This document shows positions 2,126 to 25,198 of a DNA stretch of 25,820 nt, piece after piece. Position numbers and translations under genes: made by a program. The notes beneath the pieces were generated by a model. That model worked only from the letters and a program-made list of their open reading frames with translations. It did no database searches and was not told where the DNA came from. Origin of the DNA: Treponema sp. (GTDB taxonomy: Bacteria > Spirochaetota > Spirochaetia > Treponematales > Breznakiellaceae). Where the stretch lies: the NCBI GenBank assembly GCA_031288005.1, contig JAITSE010000097.1:1-25820 (forward strand), read 5' to 3'. How positions within the stretch are numbered: the first letter of the stretch is position 1; each line of letters begins with the position of its first letter.

Positions 2126-2161
2126 ATAAAAGGCCGCTGTGAAATCTCATTTTTTAACGAA

Positions 2162-2196
2162 AGTTATTCAATAACTTCAGTTATTGAACAACTCTA
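2162..2196. repeat. Palindrome with TC loop followed by GAACAACTCTA tag
   Basis: Arms 2162-2176 and 2179-2193 are 15 bases each, with one mismatch, around a two-base TC loop (core AACT-TC-AGTT). The right arm runs into the 11-mer GAACAACTCTA (2186-2196), which recurs exactly at 3202-3212 and 24234-24244. No T-run follows on either strand, so this is not a typical terminator. It lies in AT-rich DNA between the URO-D gene and the modC remnant. Confidence 0.7.
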
Positions 2197-2247
2197 TTGT
2201 AAAACAAAGAATTAAGGTAAGGTGATTTTCTTCACAAAGCGGGAAAT

Positions 2248-2273
2248 CATCTAAAAACTTCAGTTTTTAGATG
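2248..2273. repeat. Perfect 12-bp hairpin with TC loop
   Basis: CATCTAAAAACT and AGTTTTTAGATG are exact reverse complements separated by TC. The core AACT-TC-AGTT is the same as in the palindrome 75 bases upstream, but the outer arms differ. No terminator-type T-run follows. It belongs to the same family of TC-loop palindromes. Confidence 0.7.
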
Positions 2274-2312
2274 GTCCATATAGTGTGTTTTGTGATTATA
2301 TTCGGCGGATGA

Positions 2313-2894
2313 TTATTCATCGTGGAAAAGGCCGCTTCCTGGATGGAAGTCATGGAATTGACAGACCTTGAAAACCGGCTGCCCTCACAGCTCTCAGTCG
2401 GCCAGTAGCAGCGGACGGCCCAGTCGCGTAGGCTCATCTGGAACCCCGCTGTCATACTTTTGGACGAACCCTTTTCAACTCTGGATTCGGGCCCTAGAGA
2501 ACAGATGCAAAGTCGTTTTCTGGACCTTGTGCAGGCGGGAAGGCCACTGCTTTCAGACGCTCCAGTGGCGATAGTCATGGTTACTCGCAGCCGGGATGAA
2601 GCTTACAAGCTCTGCGATTCCATTCTGGCGATGGAGGAAGGTCGGATTCTGGGTGGAGGCCCGGTCAGGGAATTCTTTGCCAACCCCCACTCGGTTCAGT
2701 CCGCACGTCTTACGGGCTGCAAAAAATATCCCCCAATCAAGCGTTGCGGGGAATGTGAAATGATTCCCCTCAACTGGGGCTCCCGCCTCTCCCTTCCCAG
2801 CCCGGTCCCCATTGACGTAACCCATATAGGTATACGGGCCCGGGTGAACTGCCGGAGCAGCTTTATGTCCCTCCCGAAGCGATACTTTTACTAA
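2313..2894 (+). pseudogene. Remnant of a molybdate/tungstate ABC transporter ATPase (ModC-like)
   Basis: A plus-strand frame reads as the C-terminal two thirds of an ABC ATPase: LPSQLSVGQ, then a TAG stop, then QRTAQSRRLIWNPA, then VILLDEPFSTLD (Walker B and D-loop), then VMVTRSRDEAYKLCDSILAM, and a ModC-like tail with RLTGCKK and HIGIRA. In an intact transporter this subunit would power molybdate or tungstate uptake. Three defects show that it is dead. The Walker A half is missing. The signature LSGGQQQR is cut by an in-frame TAG (one change from CAG). The catalytic switch His of the H-loop is Arg. No permease or binding-protein gene adjoins it. The longest stop-free piece starts at 2460. 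The 5' limit at about 2313 is approximate, because a TGA lies just before it. Confidence 0.8.
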
Positions 2895-3303
2895 GCAGTC
2901 GGCAATCAACAACTCCGTCCTGAAAACGGGGTATAAACCCTTCGCTGTGGATCAATCTTGGTCAAAAACTGGTTTTTAAATACCTTCCGCTGAAACACCA
3001 CAGTTTTGCAGGCTGCAAGCCTAAGATTCGGCAAACCTCTGGTTAGTTAGCAGCAAATTGAACAATCCGTAATGCTTGATTCGTGAATGCCTCGCAGAAA
3101 TTTTATACAGATAAACAGCATTGGCATCTGAGGTTTTACAAAGAATATTGGATTTGTTCAACAACTGAAGTTACGGAAACTGCGGAAGCTTCGTTTCCGA
3201 TGAACAACTCTATTTTTTGTATGCGCATGCTTGCACAAACGCTTAATACCACGCAGCGGAGATCGCTGTAAACTGTCAGCGGAAACATAAACCAGCAGTA
3301 AAA
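2895..3303. other. Gene-free stretch between modC remnant and fprA
   Basis: No credible coding frame was found in these roughly 410 bases. The only notable structure is the nested palindrome at 3154-3212. A 62-codon frame (3083-3271) runs straight through that palindrome and resembles no protein family I recognise. Confidence 0.5.
3154..3212. repeat. Nested palindrome ending in the GAACAACTCTA tag
   Basis: The outer arms TTGTTCA (3154-3160) and TGAACAA (3201-3207) enclose the inner arms CGGAAAC (3174-3180) and GTTTCCG (3193-3199), with a GGAAGCTTC core in the middle. The right outer arm is part of a second exact copy of GAACAACTCTA (3202-3212), followed by TATTTTTTG. The layout parallels 2162-2196, although the arms have a different sequence. 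Confidence 0.65.
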
Positions 3304-9358: not shown

Positions 9359-9688
9359 TTGAGGATGCCACACGCATACCGGCGCGGAATCGGAGTCAAG
9401 GGCTATGACAAAGCCATAGCCCTTGACTCCGATTCCGCGCCCATGAAGATCAACCGGGGTGTCGCGTATCTCGCAAAAGGGTCTCGCGGTTGGACTGTCA
9501 CAGGCTATATCATTGAAATCGGCGCCGGCTCTAGCAGCGCCGCCGCGTACCCTAAGCGCGGCTTATCGTATTACAAAAGCGGCGATATGGTGAAAGACAT
9601 CGCGGACTGTACTACGGCTATAAAGCTTGCCCGTGATGATATAACTACCGTCATATCGTTCCTCCTTTGGCAATCGCTCTATAATTGA
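9359..9688 (+). pseudogene. Fragment of a tetratricopeptide-repeat (TPR) protein
   Basis: A 109-codon frame (TTG start, no ribosome site) reads as TPR helices: GYDKAIALDSDSAP, then INRGVAYLAKG, then AAAYPKRGLSYYKSGDM, then DIADCTTAIKLA. These match the 'AYxxRGxxYxxxGDxxxAIxDxxxAIxLDP' repeat roughly twice. TPR proteins are protein-interaction scaffolds. The fragment has no signal peptide, no start region and an unrelated tail (ISFLLWQSLYN). The second repeat is degraded (SRGWTVTGYIIEIGAG replaces the expected GDYDxAIADYxxAIEIDP). Its first 16 codons overlap an inverted copy of its own sequence. It looks like a rearranged internal piece of a larger gene, with no parent copy in the window. Confidence 0.6.
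9381..9441. repeat. Perfect 27-bp inverted repeat, 7-base spacer
   Basis: Arms 9381-9407 and 9415-9441 are exact reverse complements over 27 bases, separated by ACAAAGC. The right arm encodes TPR-consensus sequence (AIALDSDSA), so the right arm is probably original and the left arm its inverted copy. The inner GGCTATG/CATAGCC could have been the seed for a fold-back copying event. Confidence 0.9.
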
Positions 9689-19476: not shown

Positions 19477-20730
19477 CTAATCCCGCATCTTAAGCCTCAG
19501 CAAAAGGGGAAGATGATCGCTTAGGCCGTTCCCCGTGCGCGGGTTATAAGCCCGGGGAATTCCCCTTGAGTCCGCAAAAGGCTCCTCCCGCGGCGCTTCG
19601 CAGTCATCGAACTCCCAGCCCAGGCCGTCAAACAAAGCCTCTGAAAGCAGGAAATGGTCAATCGTTTCCCAGCCCCCCTGGTAATAATAGGAGCCTTTTT
19701 CCAGTTCCTGTCCCCAGGGCGAATAGAGAACTGCCGTGTCTGAGGGAAAATACTCAGGCTGAGGGGGCTTCTTCCCGCTGATAACGAGAAAATCCGCCGC
19801 CTTTATGGAGCCGCTCCCGGAAGCCCCCGTTTTGCCCGGCTCCGCGAAGCCCGAAAGTTCCCAGGCAACTGCGGAAGCCCCGCTTCCGTCGGAAGCTGTA
19901 GCTTCCGCAACTGCCCAGGCTGCGGGATCGTCAGGGAGGAGAGCGCTTAGCGCCGCCTGGGCCAGGCGGTAGAATTCATCGTGGTTTTCATTGAGGTCCC
20001 CCATAATAATTACCGGCAAATCAGGCTCCGCCTCCCTTGTTTCCAGCAGCCTCCTCGCAAGCGCCTTGGCCGAAGCCCTGCGCCTGCTTTCCGTCTCCCC
20101 GCCTCCAGTCTTGGACTTCCAGTGGCAGACAAACAAGACCAGGGGCAGGTCCCCGGCCAGCGCCCGCGCCTCAAGAAGCGGCCTGGGACTGGTTTCCCCC
20201 GCGATTGTAACGGAATGAACCTTGAGTTCCGAAAGCGGCAGCCTGCTTAGAAGCCCCGTTCCCAAGACGGCGCCCGGATTAGCGGCGAAATATGACCATT
20301 GATAGCCGTACTTTGCCAGCGCCCCCCCGGCAAGCTCCCGCAGAACCTCTCCGTTTTCCAACTCCTGAAGCGCAAGGATATCCGGGGCGCCTTGAGCCAT
20401 ACTCCCCACGGCGTCTGACAGAGCGCTAAGCCTGGCCTGGTATTTTTCTTCAGACCATCCCGCCGGGCCAAGGTATTCAGAGTATTCCGTTCCGTCCTCC
20501 CTGCCGTCAAACAGAGCTTGAACATTCCAACTTGCGATGCTCAGGGTCTTAGCCCCGTCCGCGGCCTGCCCGTCCTGGACTCCGGAAAACGCGCCGCAGC
20601 CCGTGAGCCAGACGGCAAGAACCCGGGGAAACCAGGCCGCCCGCTTGCCCCGGCTTCCGTCGGAAGCTGTGGCTTCCGCGGATGCCCGGCTTCCGCGGCG
20701 CGTTGTGAAAAAACCTTTGCGAAACTTCAC
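19477..20730 (-). CDS. Secreted endonuclease/exonuclease/phosphatase-fold lipoprotein with two in-frame palindromic inserts
   Basis: 417 residues from GTG at 20730, chosen because AGGAGG lies seven bases upstream; a TTG two codons earlier would leave a one-base spacing. The fold is the DNase I-like EEP superfamily, metal-dependent phosphodiesterases or nucleases: SWNVQALF (N69), LALQELEN (E123), FVCHWKSK (H203), IIMGDLNE (D245, N247) and GLSDHLPLL (D405, H406). All catalytic positions are kept. A basic start (MKFRKGFFTTRR) and AVWLTGC (lipobox Cys about residue 45) suggest a lipid-anchored exported protein; the hydrophobic core is short and holds an Arg. AEATASDGS appears twice, at residues 18-26 inside the signal region and at 275-283 in a loop between catalytic motifs, encoded by near-identical GGAAGC/GCTTCC palindromes. 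Substrate unknown: extracellular DNA or a phosphoester. Confidence 0.82.
   Translation of the reverse strand: MKFRKGFFTTRRGSRASAEATASDGSRGKRAAWFPRVLAVWLTGCGAFSGVQDGQAADGAKTLSIASWNVQALFDGREDGTEYSEYLGPAGWSEEKYQARLSALSDAVGSMAQGAPDILALQELENGEVLRELAGGALAKYGYQWSYFAANPGAVLGTGLLSRLPLSELKVHSVTIAGETSPRPLLEARALAGDLPLVLFVCHWKSKTGGGETESRRRASAKALARRLLETREAEPDLPVIIMGDLNENHDEFYRLAQAALSALLPDDPAAWAVAEATASDGSGASAVAWELSGFAEPGKTGASGSGSIKAADFLVISGKKPPQPEYFPSDTAVLYSPWGQELEKGSYYYQGGWETIDHFLLSEALFDGLGWEFDDCEAPREEPFADSRGIPRAYNPRTGNGLSDHLPLLLRLKMRD
19865..19914. repeat. Palindromic insert 1 in the EEP gene, with 8-bp flanking direct repeats
   Basis: GCAACTGC occurs at 19865-19872 and 19907-19914. Between them, 34 bases consist of two hairpins, GGAAGC-CCC-GCTTCC and GGAAGC-TGTA-GCTTCC, joined by GTC. 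The 27 bases 19882-19908 match 20653-20679 at 26 of 27 positions. The unit stays in frame and encodes AEATASDGSGAS. Confidence 0.9.
20649..20695. repeat. Palindromic insert 2 in the EEP gene signal-peptide region
   Basis: GCTTCC-GTC-GGAAGC-TGTG-GCTTCC at 20653-20677 is the second copy of the repeat at 19882-19908. Here an 11-base direct repeat, CCCGGCTTCCG, flanks it (20649-20659, 20685-20695). It lies between the basic start and the hydrophobic part of the presumed signal peptide. Confidence 0.88.
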
Positions 20731-21063
20731 AGCCAAACCTCCTGATATATATATGGGGCGGGGATGCAGGGCGCTTCAATCTGTGCGTCCCTGCGGGCCG
20801 CTTAGGAGTTTTGCGGCCTCAAAACAGTCTCCCCTAGAGTCATAACAGCCCGCAAAACTCCACCGGCGGGCGGCTTGTAGAATGTTTTATTCTACACGTA
20901 GAATTCTTTATTCGACATGTAGAATTCTTGCGTCCCTTGCGGGCCGCTTAGGAGTTTGGACGCCGCGGCCTTTGCTGCTGGGTCCCTGGTCCAAAACTCT
21001 ACCAAATGGGCGGACAAAATTAGGCCGTAGAAGCAAATCCCGGTTTTATACTATCATGCCTTC
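20731..21063. repeat. Divergent intergenic region with duplicated palindromes and a 21-bp tandem repeat
   Basis: No gene is seen. A 27-28 base direct repeat (GCGTCCCT(T)GCGGGCCGC, then TTAGGAGTTT) occurs at 20785-20811 and 20930-20957. Each copy begins a larger palindrome: GGAGTTTTGCGG (20805-20816) pairs with 20850-20861, and GAGTTTGGAC (20952-20961) pairs with 20989-20999 with one bulge. Between them, GTAGAAT starts at 20877, 20898 and 20919, an exact 21-base period. The first two units also fold back (GTAGAAT-GTTTT-ATTCTAC). Confidence 0.85.
21047..21052 (+). promoter_or_regulatory. -10 box TATACT close to the MBL start codon
   Basis: TATACT ends 11 bases before the ATG at 21064, so a usual start point would leave a leader of only about 4-6 bases. 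No Shine-Dalgarno is present. No good -35 match was found. Confidence 0.4.
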
Positions 21064-22479: not shown

Positions 22480-23243
22480 TCTATCTGACAGGATTTCACG
22501 CCATTGAAGAAGCCATAAAGGCGGCGGAAGCCGCTTCAGCGGGCGGGCAGCAAGCGGGCGGGCAGAGTCCAGGTCCCATGTTCATGGCAAAGCCCGGCCC
22601 CAGGGCAAGGGAGCTTGCGGCTCTGGCCCTGGCGCACAAAATCCGGGTGGACCGGGTGGGGACTCACGAGCTTGACCGCATTGCTCCAGGACACCGGGGC
22701 ATAGCCCTGGCCGCGGATGGCCGCCTGAGCCGCCTTGGCCCGGAGACAGACCTTGACGCCTTTATCGCCGGTCTTGGGGACAAAAAGGACGCCCTTGCGC
22801 TTATTCTGGACGAGATTACAGACCCCCACAATTACGGCGCCATACTCAGGTCCTGCGATCAGTTCGGCGCCGGCCTGGTAATTTCCCGGAACCGGCGGAC
22901 GGCCAAACACGCGGAAGTCATCGCCCAGACCTCATCCGGCGCGTCCTCCTGGGTTCCCGCGGCGGAAGAGGCGAATCTGCCCAGGGCCGTGGAGAAGCTC
23001 AAAAGTGCGGGATTCTGGATCTACGGCGCCGACGCGGAAGGCGAAGCGGTTTACACCCGGGACCTTAGAGGCCGCGCCGCGCTTGTCCTGGGCGGGGAAG
23101 GCTCAGGCATTTCCCGCCTCCTAAAGGAAGCCTGCGACGGGCTTGTAGGTATACCAACCGCGGGCAGACTTGACTCCCTTAACGTGTCGGTAGCCGCGGG
23201 CATACTGCTTTACGAAGCGGCAAGACAGCGGCGGAAGGCTTAA
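22476..23243 (+). CDS. SpoU/TrmH-family RNA 2'-O-methyltransferase (RlmB-like)
   Basis: 255 residues. The N-terminal RNA-binding part begins YLTGFHAIEEAI. The C-terminal SPOUT domain shows motif 1 LDEITDPHNYGAILRSCDQFG (N119, R125), motif 2 LVLGGEGSGI (E208) and motif 3 GIPTAGRLDSLNVSVAAGILLYE, forming the knotted SAM site. Enzymes of this family methylate ribose in 23S rRNA (RlmB) or tRNA (TrmH); the RlmB-like N-domain favours rRNA, but the target is not proven. A 15-base near-tandem duplication (AGCGGGCGGGCAG at 22538 and 22553) adds GGQQ/AGGQ in the linker at residues 23-30, preceded by an AEAAS stretch. Its start overlaps the MBL stop by four bases. Convergent with ferritin, 20 bases apart. 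Confidence 0.9.
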   Translation: MIYLTGFHAIEEAIKAAEAASAGGQQAGGQSPGPMFMAKPGPRARELAALALAHKIRVDRVGTHELDRIAPGHRGIALAADGRLSRLGPETDLDAFIAGLGDKKDALALILDEITDPHNYGAILRSCDQFGAGLVISRNRRTAKHAEVIAQTSSGASSWVPAAEEANLPRAVEKLKSAGFWIYGADAEGEAVYTRDLRGRAALVLGGEGSGISRLLKEACDGLVGIPTAGRLDSLNVSVAAGILLYEAARQRRKA

Positions 23244-23828: not shown

Positions 23829-24248
23829 CAAGCCCCCTTGAAGGTTAAACTTGACCCGCAAATACCAGAAATTTAACTACGGACATTAGATCCGATGCGG
23901 TAAATCTTCCTTAGAAATTGTCTTTTCTCTATAATAATGCTTTATCAATAAAACCAAGTGAGTTTATAAAAGAATTGAAAATGGACTATCGGATTAACTA
24001 TAGCTTTCATTATGTTTCTGATCTTTCTGTTAATGCAGAAAATGTTATTCGTATTGGGGGTTTAACACCCCGCTACTCTGCGGCGGAGTATGGTTGATTA
24101 ATGCGGTTATTAAAGCAAACGCTGCATTGTTAAGAATTTCAGTAAACTTATATCGTACTGTTGGCTTAAAACATCAAGTGCTATCTTGGGAGCTATATTT
24201 TATTATTGGACTTGACGAACCGATGTTTCTGACGAACAACTCTAATGT
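23829..24248. other. AT-rich gene-poor stretch with a short unidentified frame
   Basis: Base composition drops sharply compared with the genes to the left. A 38-codon plus-strand frame from ATG 23981 to TGA 24097 (MDYRINYSFHYVSDLSVNAE...) has protein-like composition and is open upstream to about 23915, but I recognise no family. It may be a relic. Small hairpins GGGG-TTTAACA-CCCC (about 24057-24071) and TACTC...GAGTA follow. A third copy of GAACAACTCTA is at 24234-24244. Confidence 0.35.
24234..24244 (+). repeat. Third copy of the GAACAACTCTA tag
   Basis: Exact match to 2186-2196 and 3202-3212, in the same orientation and again in AT-rich DNA without a functional gene. The sequence before it contains GACGAACCGATG and TTTCTGACGAAC rather than a clear palindrome. 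Confidence 0.6.
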
Positions 24249-25198
24249 TTATATATTTCCGATGGTCACCGGGGTATTCTTATCATCCAATTTGATATTA
24301 AAAGATGGGGTACAATATCTGGAACAACAGACAGGAACATAAAAATTTATGGGATGGCCGCTACAGGACAAACAAAAGTGAAAAATGGATAGTAATTCAT
24401 GAAAAATATGCATCGAAATACAATCAATTACTATAAAAAATTCCGATTGTATTTTTTGTACGTGTGATTCATAAAATATCTTTTCTTGACTTGTTTTGCC
24501 TACAGCTCCTTTTAATGAAATGAGTGAAACAAAAGGTAAATAATCACCATGTTCGTCTTCACAAAAAATAACCTCTCCTTTTCTTGATTTTGCCCAAGCA
24601 GCTAATTTTGTATAATCTATCAGATTTGAGCCATAGCCATAGCCATAGCCCATGCCCGGTTCACCTTTATACGGAGGATCAATAAACCAAGCGGCCTCAA
24701 TATTAGGAGACTCAGAATAATCACCACAAATTATTTTTTAGTGGTTGATTTTATATAAATTTTCCGCAAACACTCTTCTGCTGATTTCCCAATTTCTCTC
24801 TATAAAGAAGAGTAACTTTTATTCGTTTAAATTTGAACGCCATCTCTGTTGCAGCATGAACTATGTGTAAGAATTCAGTGGAGTGATCGCCAGCCTTCAA
24901 ATCTGGTAATAGATGAATATCTGAAACAGTTGCTTCATCTATTAGCCAACGCCAAATTTCAGCAACACGAGGGCCTTTTTCAATCAATATAACCCTTTTC
25001 TTCCAAATTATCCCCATATAATGAATATGCGGCGGCGCCAGCAAACGGTTCTATGATAGCCGCACAATTTGGAAAGGGGTAATACTTGGCTATTTGTTTC
25101 TTGCGTCCATAATGATAAAAAATACTATAGTATTCGATGTAATCCCCACCTGTCAAGATATTTTTGATTATTTTGCGAAATTTTGCCCTGCTGTGCAT
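24249..25198 (-). pseudogene. Decayed D12-class (Dam-like) N6-adenine DNA methyltransferase
   Basis: Three minus-strand frames join into one methylase. The first (from 25198) gives YYSIFYHYGRKKQIAKYYPF and IIEPFAGAAAYSLYGDN (SAM-binding FAGxxxxS motif). After a frameshift near 25010 the next frame gives RVILIEKGPRVAEIWRWLI and HLLPDLKAG, ending KSVCGKFI-stop at 24751. A third frame resumes about 12 bases on with KIICGDYSESPNIEAAWFIDPPY (catalytic DPPY), then SNLIDYTKLAAWAKSRKG and VIFCEDEHGDYLPF. About 40 residues normally present before 'GDY' appear to be missing. The start region has no ATG before YYSIF. Homology fades near 24450, while the open frame runs on to 24249. An intact version would methylate adenine, as an orphan or restriction-linked enzyme. 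No restriction nuclease is nearby. GYGYGYG comes from a triple CCATAG repeat. Confidence 0.8.

What the first reader, a model, noticed from the sequence alone, without database searches (positions are those of the whole stretch)
19865..20695. A palindromic repeat has entered one gene twice, in frame, with flanking direct repeats
Two 27-base copies, identical at 26 positions, sit 771 bases apart in the EEP lipoprotein gene and both encode AEATASDGS. One lies in the signal-peptide region, the other in a loop between catalytic motifs. Copy 1 is a 34-base double hairpin bracketed by GCAACTGC repeats, which looks like an insertion with target duplication. All catalytic residues survive. This resembles the Rickettsia palindromic elements known to insert in genes, but with another sequence. 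A shorter AEAAS stretch with GGAAGC/GCTTC occurs in the trmH-like gene at about 22523-22540.
Basis: partly seen in the sequence, partly recalled or inferred. Interest (0 to 1): 0.8.

Follow-up and report, generated by a model that had tools for sequence, protein, structure and literature searches.

The report
Hairpin DNA inserted inside a gene
A short self-complementary piece of DNA sits in frame in a loop of a spirochaete enzyme gene where its aligned relatives have nothing, and a cultured relative carries an unrelated but similar repeat almost at the same place and in dozens of other reading frames.

Summary
In detail: two 27-nt copies (26/27 identical, 771 nt apart) lie in frame in an EEP-domain gene and encode AEATASDGS. 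Copy 1 is a clean in-frame insertion: 53 of 53 aligned orthologues lack the same 18 residues (54 nt). Copy 2 is not a clean gap. The GCAACTGC boxes are better read as parts of two 20-nt inverted arms that pair fully in the mRNA through G-U pairs; CCCAGGC, 54 nt apart, is the better candidate for a target duplication. No further copy was found, but the host genome is not held: 390 sampled genomes of the order give chance-level matches and 41 protein candidates only the window's own. Spread of this element is unproven. The kind is real in the clade: Treponema primitia ZAS-2 has three tandem copies of an unrelated hairpin repeat 2-4 residues from the same place in the same gene. That repeat has 98 matches in its genome, 48 of 64 sites examined lie in ORFs, in all six frames, and 8 of 19 ORF readings with a spanning homologue show a gap there. 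It behaves like Rickettsia palindromic elements but is not shown to be one.

The parts
19477..20736 (-). EEP-domain (endonuclease/exonuclease/phosphatase) putative lipoprotein gene holding both copies; likely start is GTG at 20730, downstream of an AGGAGG
   Evidence: start codon and lipobox (LTGC) read from the sequence
19860..19920 (-). Insertion 1 with its candidate target repeats; net 54 nt (18 residues) absent from aligned orthologues
   Evidence: 53 of 53 gapped over 18 columns
19860..19879 (+). Arm of a 60-nt imperfect palindrome
   Evidence: 15 of 20 positions Watson-Crick with 19900-19919; all 20 pair in the coding-strand RNA
19900..19919 (+). Other arm of the 60-nt imperfect palindrome
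19860..19866 (+). CCCAGGC, candidate target-site duplication, copy a
   Evidence: spacing 54 equals the gap in orthologues
19914..19920 (+). CCCAGGC, candidate target-site duplication, copy b
19882..19908 (+). 27-nt repeat unit, copy 1 (AEATASDGS on the minus strand)
20653..20679 (+). 27-nt repeat unit, copy 2 (AEATASDGS on the minus strand), before the hydrophobic part of the signal peptide
   Evidence: not a clean gap in orthologues
22515..22560 (+). N-terminal expansion of the SpoU/RlmB-type methyltransferase gene with a small GAAGC/GCTTC hairpin; possible but unproven relative

Best explanation
Copy 1 is a short hairpin repeat of about 47 nt (54 nt with a possible 7-nt target duplication) that entered a probably disordered loop of an EEP lipoprotein in frame and is read as AVAEATASDGSGASAV. 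It is tolerated because its length is a multiple of three, it has no stop in that frame, and the loop is permissive. Copy 2 is a second copy of the 27-nt core in the n-region of the signal peptide; whether by a second insertion or by copying from the first is open. It most likely belongs to a lineage-private family of coding-tolerant palindromic repeats, such as T. primitia ZAS-2 has with another sequence. Shown here: the sequence, the clean gap for copy 1, the hairpin potential, the low-confidence loop in the model, and the T. primitia repeat in ORFs. Inferred: insertion in this lineage rather than loss in all relatives, translation, mobility, and a family in the host genome. The enzyme or process that copies it is unknown.
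For: 53 of 53 aligned orthologues lack the 18 residues. Coding-strand RNA of copy 1 folds to -44.3 kcal/mol, z -5.96; copy 2 to -37.3, z -4.84 (stretches chosen because they looked palindromic). Both copies lie in model stretches with pLDDT below 50 (1-38 and 267-296), while ten-residue blocks of the EEP domain outside them are mostly 70-96. T. primitia ZAS-2 has 3 tandem 24-nt units 2-4 residues from the same place. That repeat has 79 hits at up to 1 mismatch against 0 in the control, and 98 at up to 2 mismatches with a longer pattern, control 0. 48 of 64 separate sites lie in ORFs of 120 aa or more, all six frames used. In 8 of 19 ORF readings with a spanning homologue, at least one homologue is gapped at the element. 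One compensatory stem change was seen in its long form, CCGACTAAAGTCGG against CCGGCTAAAGCCGG.
Against: Only two copies are known, both in one 1.26-kb gene, and nothing above background was found elsewhere in 25.8 kb. A 23-nt core gives 12 matches in 390 genomes of the order, all at 3 mismatches, against about 37 for the reversed control pattern. Copy 2 is not a clean insertion. In T. primitia the repeat is in ORFs somewhat less often than random positions are (48 of 64 against 503 of 600), and in 11 of 19 ORF readings no spanning homologue meets the gap rule. No transposase is linked to it: the T. primitia repeat is absent from the 3.3-kb loci of its three Y1_Tnp genes.
Confidence: 0.6

Rival explanations
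1. No dispersed family: the 27-nt core arose once, for example by template switching on a quasi-palindrome, and was copied inside the same gene by gene conversion or local duplication.
For: Two copies in one gene; none above background elsewhere in the window or in the genomes searched. 26 of 27 identity, with similarity reaching 39 nt at 87% (family D2).
Against: The flanks differ beyond about 39 nt. T. primitia shows that dispersed repeats of this kind exist in the clade.
Confidence: 0.27
2. An mRNA or DNA structure under selection: the hairpin is kept for a regulatory role such as mRNA stability or translational pausing, and its peptide is incidental.
For: All 20 outer arm positions of copy 1 pair in the coding-strand RNA because the 5 non-Watson-Crick positions are G-U there (-44.3 against -34.5 kcal/mol on the other strand).
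Against: Absent from 53 of 53 aligned orthologues. The G-U pairs come mostly as two self-complementary boxes, so they are not independent events. Copy 2 shows little strand difference (-37.3 against -35.1).
Confidence: 0.08
3. Chance or composition: alanine-, serine- and glycine-rich loop coding in a G+C-rich gene gives palindromes by itself.
For: Eight of 87 other EEP ORFs have a longer perfect palindrome somewhere, and L062 has a palindromic alanine-rich stretch in the same loop.
Against: A 27-nt repeat is far outside 50 resampled windows (longest 19) and outside 86 of 87 other EEP ORFs (16 or less; the exception is T. primitia).
Confidence: 0.05

Closest known systems
Rickettsia palindromic elements (RPE)
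   Same: Hairpin repeats found in frame inside genes of ordinary proteins
   Different: RPEs are given as 105-146 bp, in intergenic places and in 19 reading frames (passages of PMC2229807); here about 47-54 bp and two copies known, in one gene. No RPE sequence was compared.
Intragenic GTAG and CGTC REPs (Di Nocera 2013, PMC3733652; abstract and passages seen)
   Same: Short (20-40 bp) palindromes, some inside ORFs; different REPs at about the same site of recB in two Xanthomonas species parallel the same-loop case here
   Different: Our core has a 6-bp GGAAGC/GCTTCC stem without the AT pairs, no CCA tail and no proven spread
T. primitia ZAS-2 24-nt GCGC-bordered repeat
   Same: Hairpin repeat, in frame, 2-4 residues from the same place in the same gene, few genomes
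   Different: Unrelated sequence, 24-nt unit often in tandem, 98 matches in the genome
Palindromic amphipathic repeat coding elements, PARCEL (PMC2996958; passages seen)
   Same: Palindromic repeats that are translated
   Different: Tandem arrays; not compared by sequence here

Membership tests
Rickettsia palindromic element (RPE) | Palindromic sequence with terminal inverted repeats | tested here: met
   (copy 1)
Rickettsia palindromic element (RPE) | In-frame insertion in a gene whose orthologues lack it | tested here: met
   copy 1: 53 of 53 aligned orthologues; copy 2 inconclusive
Rickettsia palindromic element (RPE) | Length 105-146 bp | tested here: not met
   about 47-54 nt; length range from PMC2229807
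Rickettsia palindromic element (RPE) | Many dispersed copies in the genome | not testable with these tools
   host genome not held; chance-level matches in relatives
CGTC REP | Unpaired CGTC tag, 8-9 bp stem starting with AT pairs, 4-5 nt loop, CCA-like tail | tested here: not met
   CGTC occurs between the two small hairpins and the loop is 4 nt, but the stem is 6 bp GGAAGC/GCTTCC and the tail is GCA or GCG (sequence; definition)
GTAG REP | GTAG at one end | tested here: not met
   copy 2 has TGTGG where copy 1 has TGTAG, and the motif is in a loop
GTAG REP | Association with a RAYT (Y1) transposase | not tested
   Y1_Tnp was not searched in the window; the ZAS-2 repeat is absent from the loci of its three Y1_Tnp genes
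MITE | Terminal inverted repeats plus target-site duplication | tested here: inconclusive
   CCCAGGC 54 nt apart fits the gap, but it is part of self-complementary arms

The most novel reading that the evidence does not exclude
Termite-gut treponemes, which are not reduced intracellular bacteria, carry fast-turning, lineage-private families of short hairpin DNA that spread into protein-coding genes in all six frames. Different families independently land in the same permissive protein loop, and the window shows a second such family at the EEP gene.
Probability: 0.4. Interest if true: 0.7.

Novelty: new member of a known kind. Interest (0 to 1): 0.5.

Why it matters
Coding palindromes are reported mainly from Rickettsia and a few others (passages), and how they move is not settled there. 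T. primitia ZAS-2, which to my knowledge is in culture (recalled), with 98 matches of a coding-tolerant hairpin repeat, would be a workable organism in which to ask how such DNA is copied and whether the peptides are made. The window adds a second, unrelated hairpin in the same loop of the same enzyme.

Tried and rejected
Rejected: GCAACTGC as the target duplication (42 nt apart, does not fit the 54-nt gap). Rejected: the trmH-like stretch as a proven third copy (background-level similarity). Rejected: the blastn hits of the 71-nt insert in the family (155 of 195 genomes with a match at E up to 1; best E 3e-4 over 26 nt). By my count about 40 genomes have a best E of 0.05 or less where about 10 would be expected, an excess. 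The 30 best loci were realigned; the matches are short pieces from different parts of the query without a common extended sequence, so I put the excess down to composition, but this was not tested. Rejected: clustering of the ZAS-2 copies (p 0.06-0.44 over four distances). Rejected: a coding palindrome in every genome. In 400-kb samples Breznakiella homolactica shows repeats mostly outside ORFs (4 of 15, 3 of 12 and 1 of 8 copies in ORFs), and none of the 14 k-mer groups listed for Leadbettera azotonutricia had a long common extension. Led nowhere: viral contigs exact pattern (0); Rfam at gathering threshold (0); literature searches, in whose listings (4-20 rows each) I saw no title or abstract on coding palindromes in Treponema. 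The bias towards ARGTSLQVA in ZAS-2 (16 of 48, p 0.004 against 1/6) is not explained.

Full report
What is there. The EEP gene (window 19477-20736, minus strand; two EEP Pfam matches) holds two 27-nt copies of a GGAAGC/GCTTCC repeat, 771 nt apart and 26/27 identical, both read as AEATASDGS. In 50 order-2 Markov resamplings of the window the longest repeat found with one mismatch was 19 nt. Among 88 EEP ORFs (the window's and 87 from fetched loci) the window's internal repeat is the longest (27 nt), that of T. primitia ZAS-2 the second (26, tandem), and the next 16. The loci's titles say Treponema sp., Spirochaetaceae or Spirochaetia; that T. primitia and its relatives are termite-gut bacteria is recalled, and that the window comes from such a bacterium is inferred.

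Is it an insertion? Of 1358 homologues 120 were listed, one of them the window's own. 53 of the other 119 (the best 49 and four more) were aligned with the window protein. All 53 lack the same 18 residues at the loop LLPDDPA-[18]-AWELSG, that is 54 nt. The seven closest by profile score are 60-68% identical in that alignment. Copy 2 is different. From the start codon to the lipobox cysteine the window has 45 or 47 residues, depending on the start; of the first nine relatives with that cysteine found, seven have 43, one 49 and one, perhaps cut short, 9. An insertion of 9-12 residues would in most comparisons need a compensating loss. 'Entered twice' is thus shown for one copy only.

Target duplication. 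GCAACTGC (19865-19872, 19907-19914) is 42 nt apart and CCCAGGC (19860-19866, 19914-19920) is 54 nt apart; only the latter fits the gap. Both belong to two arms, 19860-19879 and 19900-19919, that are complementary at 15 of 20 positions. The other five are G-U pairs in the coding-strand RNA, so that all 20 pair (-44.3 kcal/mol, z -5.96; other strand -34.5, z -4.05; copy 2 -37.3, z -4.84, and -35.1, z -3.18). The boxes are nearly self-complementary, so they read as direct and as inverted repeats at once. The data do not decide between a 47-nt element with a 7-nt duplication and a 60-nt hairpin that replaced about 6 nt. The z-scores are post hoc because the stretches were chosen for looking palindromic.

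Effect on the protein. AlphaFold2 on the 54-row alignment gives mean pLDDT 71.8. Both copies are in stretches below 50 (1-38, 267-296); the ten-residue blocks of the EEP domain outside the low stretches are mostly 70-96, with 58-61 in three. The GDLNEN, DH and SDH residues are kept. The protein database holds a shorter prediction of this gene (307 aa).

Search for more copies. No whole genome is held for the window. The 26-nt core with up to 3 mismatches is in 0 of 8 genomes and in 0 of 98 sampled from the family. A 23-nt core gives 12 matches in 390 genomes sampled from the order, all at 3 mismatches, against about 37 for the reversed control pattern (my count). blastn of the 71-nt insert in 195 family genomes gave short matches, more of them at E up to 0.05 than expected, but without a common extended sequence in the 30 loci looked at again. 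The viral collection has no exact match. Of 41 protein candidates that share words with the insert region and fit the length limits, only the window's own passed E 10. A family of this sequence is therefore not demonstrated.

Almost the same place in T. primitia. One listed orthologue, from T. primitia ZAS-2, carries ARGTSLHVARGTSLQVARGTSLQV 2-4 residues from the window's insertion point. The DNA is three tandem 24-nt units with GCGC borders. The core motif occurs 79 times in that genome with 0 in the control; a longer pattern gives 98 matches there and matches in 7 further genomes of 195 (16 in G178, 12 in G048, 1-2 in the others). G043 was identified as ZAS-2 by its 4,059,867-base contig and the 100% protein match. 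Long forms contain CCGACTAAAGTCGG or CCGGCTAAAGCCGG, one compensatory change. Of 64 separate sites (copies within 120 nt merged, sites within 300 nt of a locus end dropped), 48 lie in ORFs of at least 120 aa, in all six frames (16, 7, 5 on one strand and 4, 6, 10 on the other), against 503 of 600 random positions. ORFs were called mechanically and not annotated. Nineteen ORF readings had a homologue spanning the site in the partial reference DNA at hand. In eight, at least one homologue lacked six or more of the eight residues at the element (sites in L128, L132, L135, L136, L138, L139, L240, L251); in eleven none did. In fetched stretches of the seven other genomes, 21 sites were recognised, in six of them, and 11 of the 21 lay in ORFs by the same ORF rule. 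The repeat is absent from the 3.3-kb loci of the three Y1_Tnp genes of ZAS-2.

Reading. Copy 1 most likely is a short coding-tolerant hairpin insertion of the kind known from Rickettsia and from intragenic REPs. Different REPs at about the same site of recB in two Xanthomonas species are a precedent for the same-loop case (PMC3733652, passage). In-frame palindromic coding insertions are also mentioned for Wolbachia and Methanocaldococcus jannaschii (PMC2996958, passage). It is not filed as an RPE or as a tagged REP, because length, stem and tail were not met and spread could not be tested in the host. The rival, a local duplication inside one gene, stays open.

Noticed in passing
window 2160-2200, 3150-3222, 24200-24254: Three places with GAACAACTCTA preceded by hairpins or hairpin-like arms; a similar ending follows similar sequence in L004, L010, L014 (twice), L015 and L045, so it looks like a clade-wide REP-like family.
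   Followed up: partly
window 2245-2275: Hairpin CATCTAAAAACTTCAGTTTTTAGATG with the same ACTTCAGT core.
   Followed up: no
window 9381-9441: 27-bp perfect inverted repeat with a 7-nt loop inside a short ORF (9359-9688); could be a fold-back artefact of assembly or a real hairpin.
   Followed up: no
window 2460-2894: Short ORF that reads like an ABC-transporter ATPase fragment (MDEPFSTLDSG), probably a gene remnant; named from recall, not tested.
   Followed up: no
window 20789-20964: A 30-nt repeat beginning CCCTGCGGGCCGCTTAGGAGTTT (87%) and GTAGAAT repeats upstream of the EEP gene.
   Followed up: no
L015, EEP ORF nt 10-40: A perfect 14-bp hairpin with the ACTGAAGT core lies at the predicted start of another EEP gene; the true start may be downstream.
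   Followed up: partly
L062, EEP loop: A palindromic alanine-rich stretch in the same loop; may be composition only.
   Followed up: partly
G008 (Breznakiella homolactica), L209-L228: REP-like family CGGCCTGCGGCCTCGAAAGTCGCTCAT, 15 copies in 400 kb, 4 of them in ORFs.
   Followed up: partly
T. primitia ZAS-2 (G043): Copies of the 24-nt repeat in ORFs favour the frame ARGTSLQVA: 16 of 48, p 0.004.
   Followed up: partly
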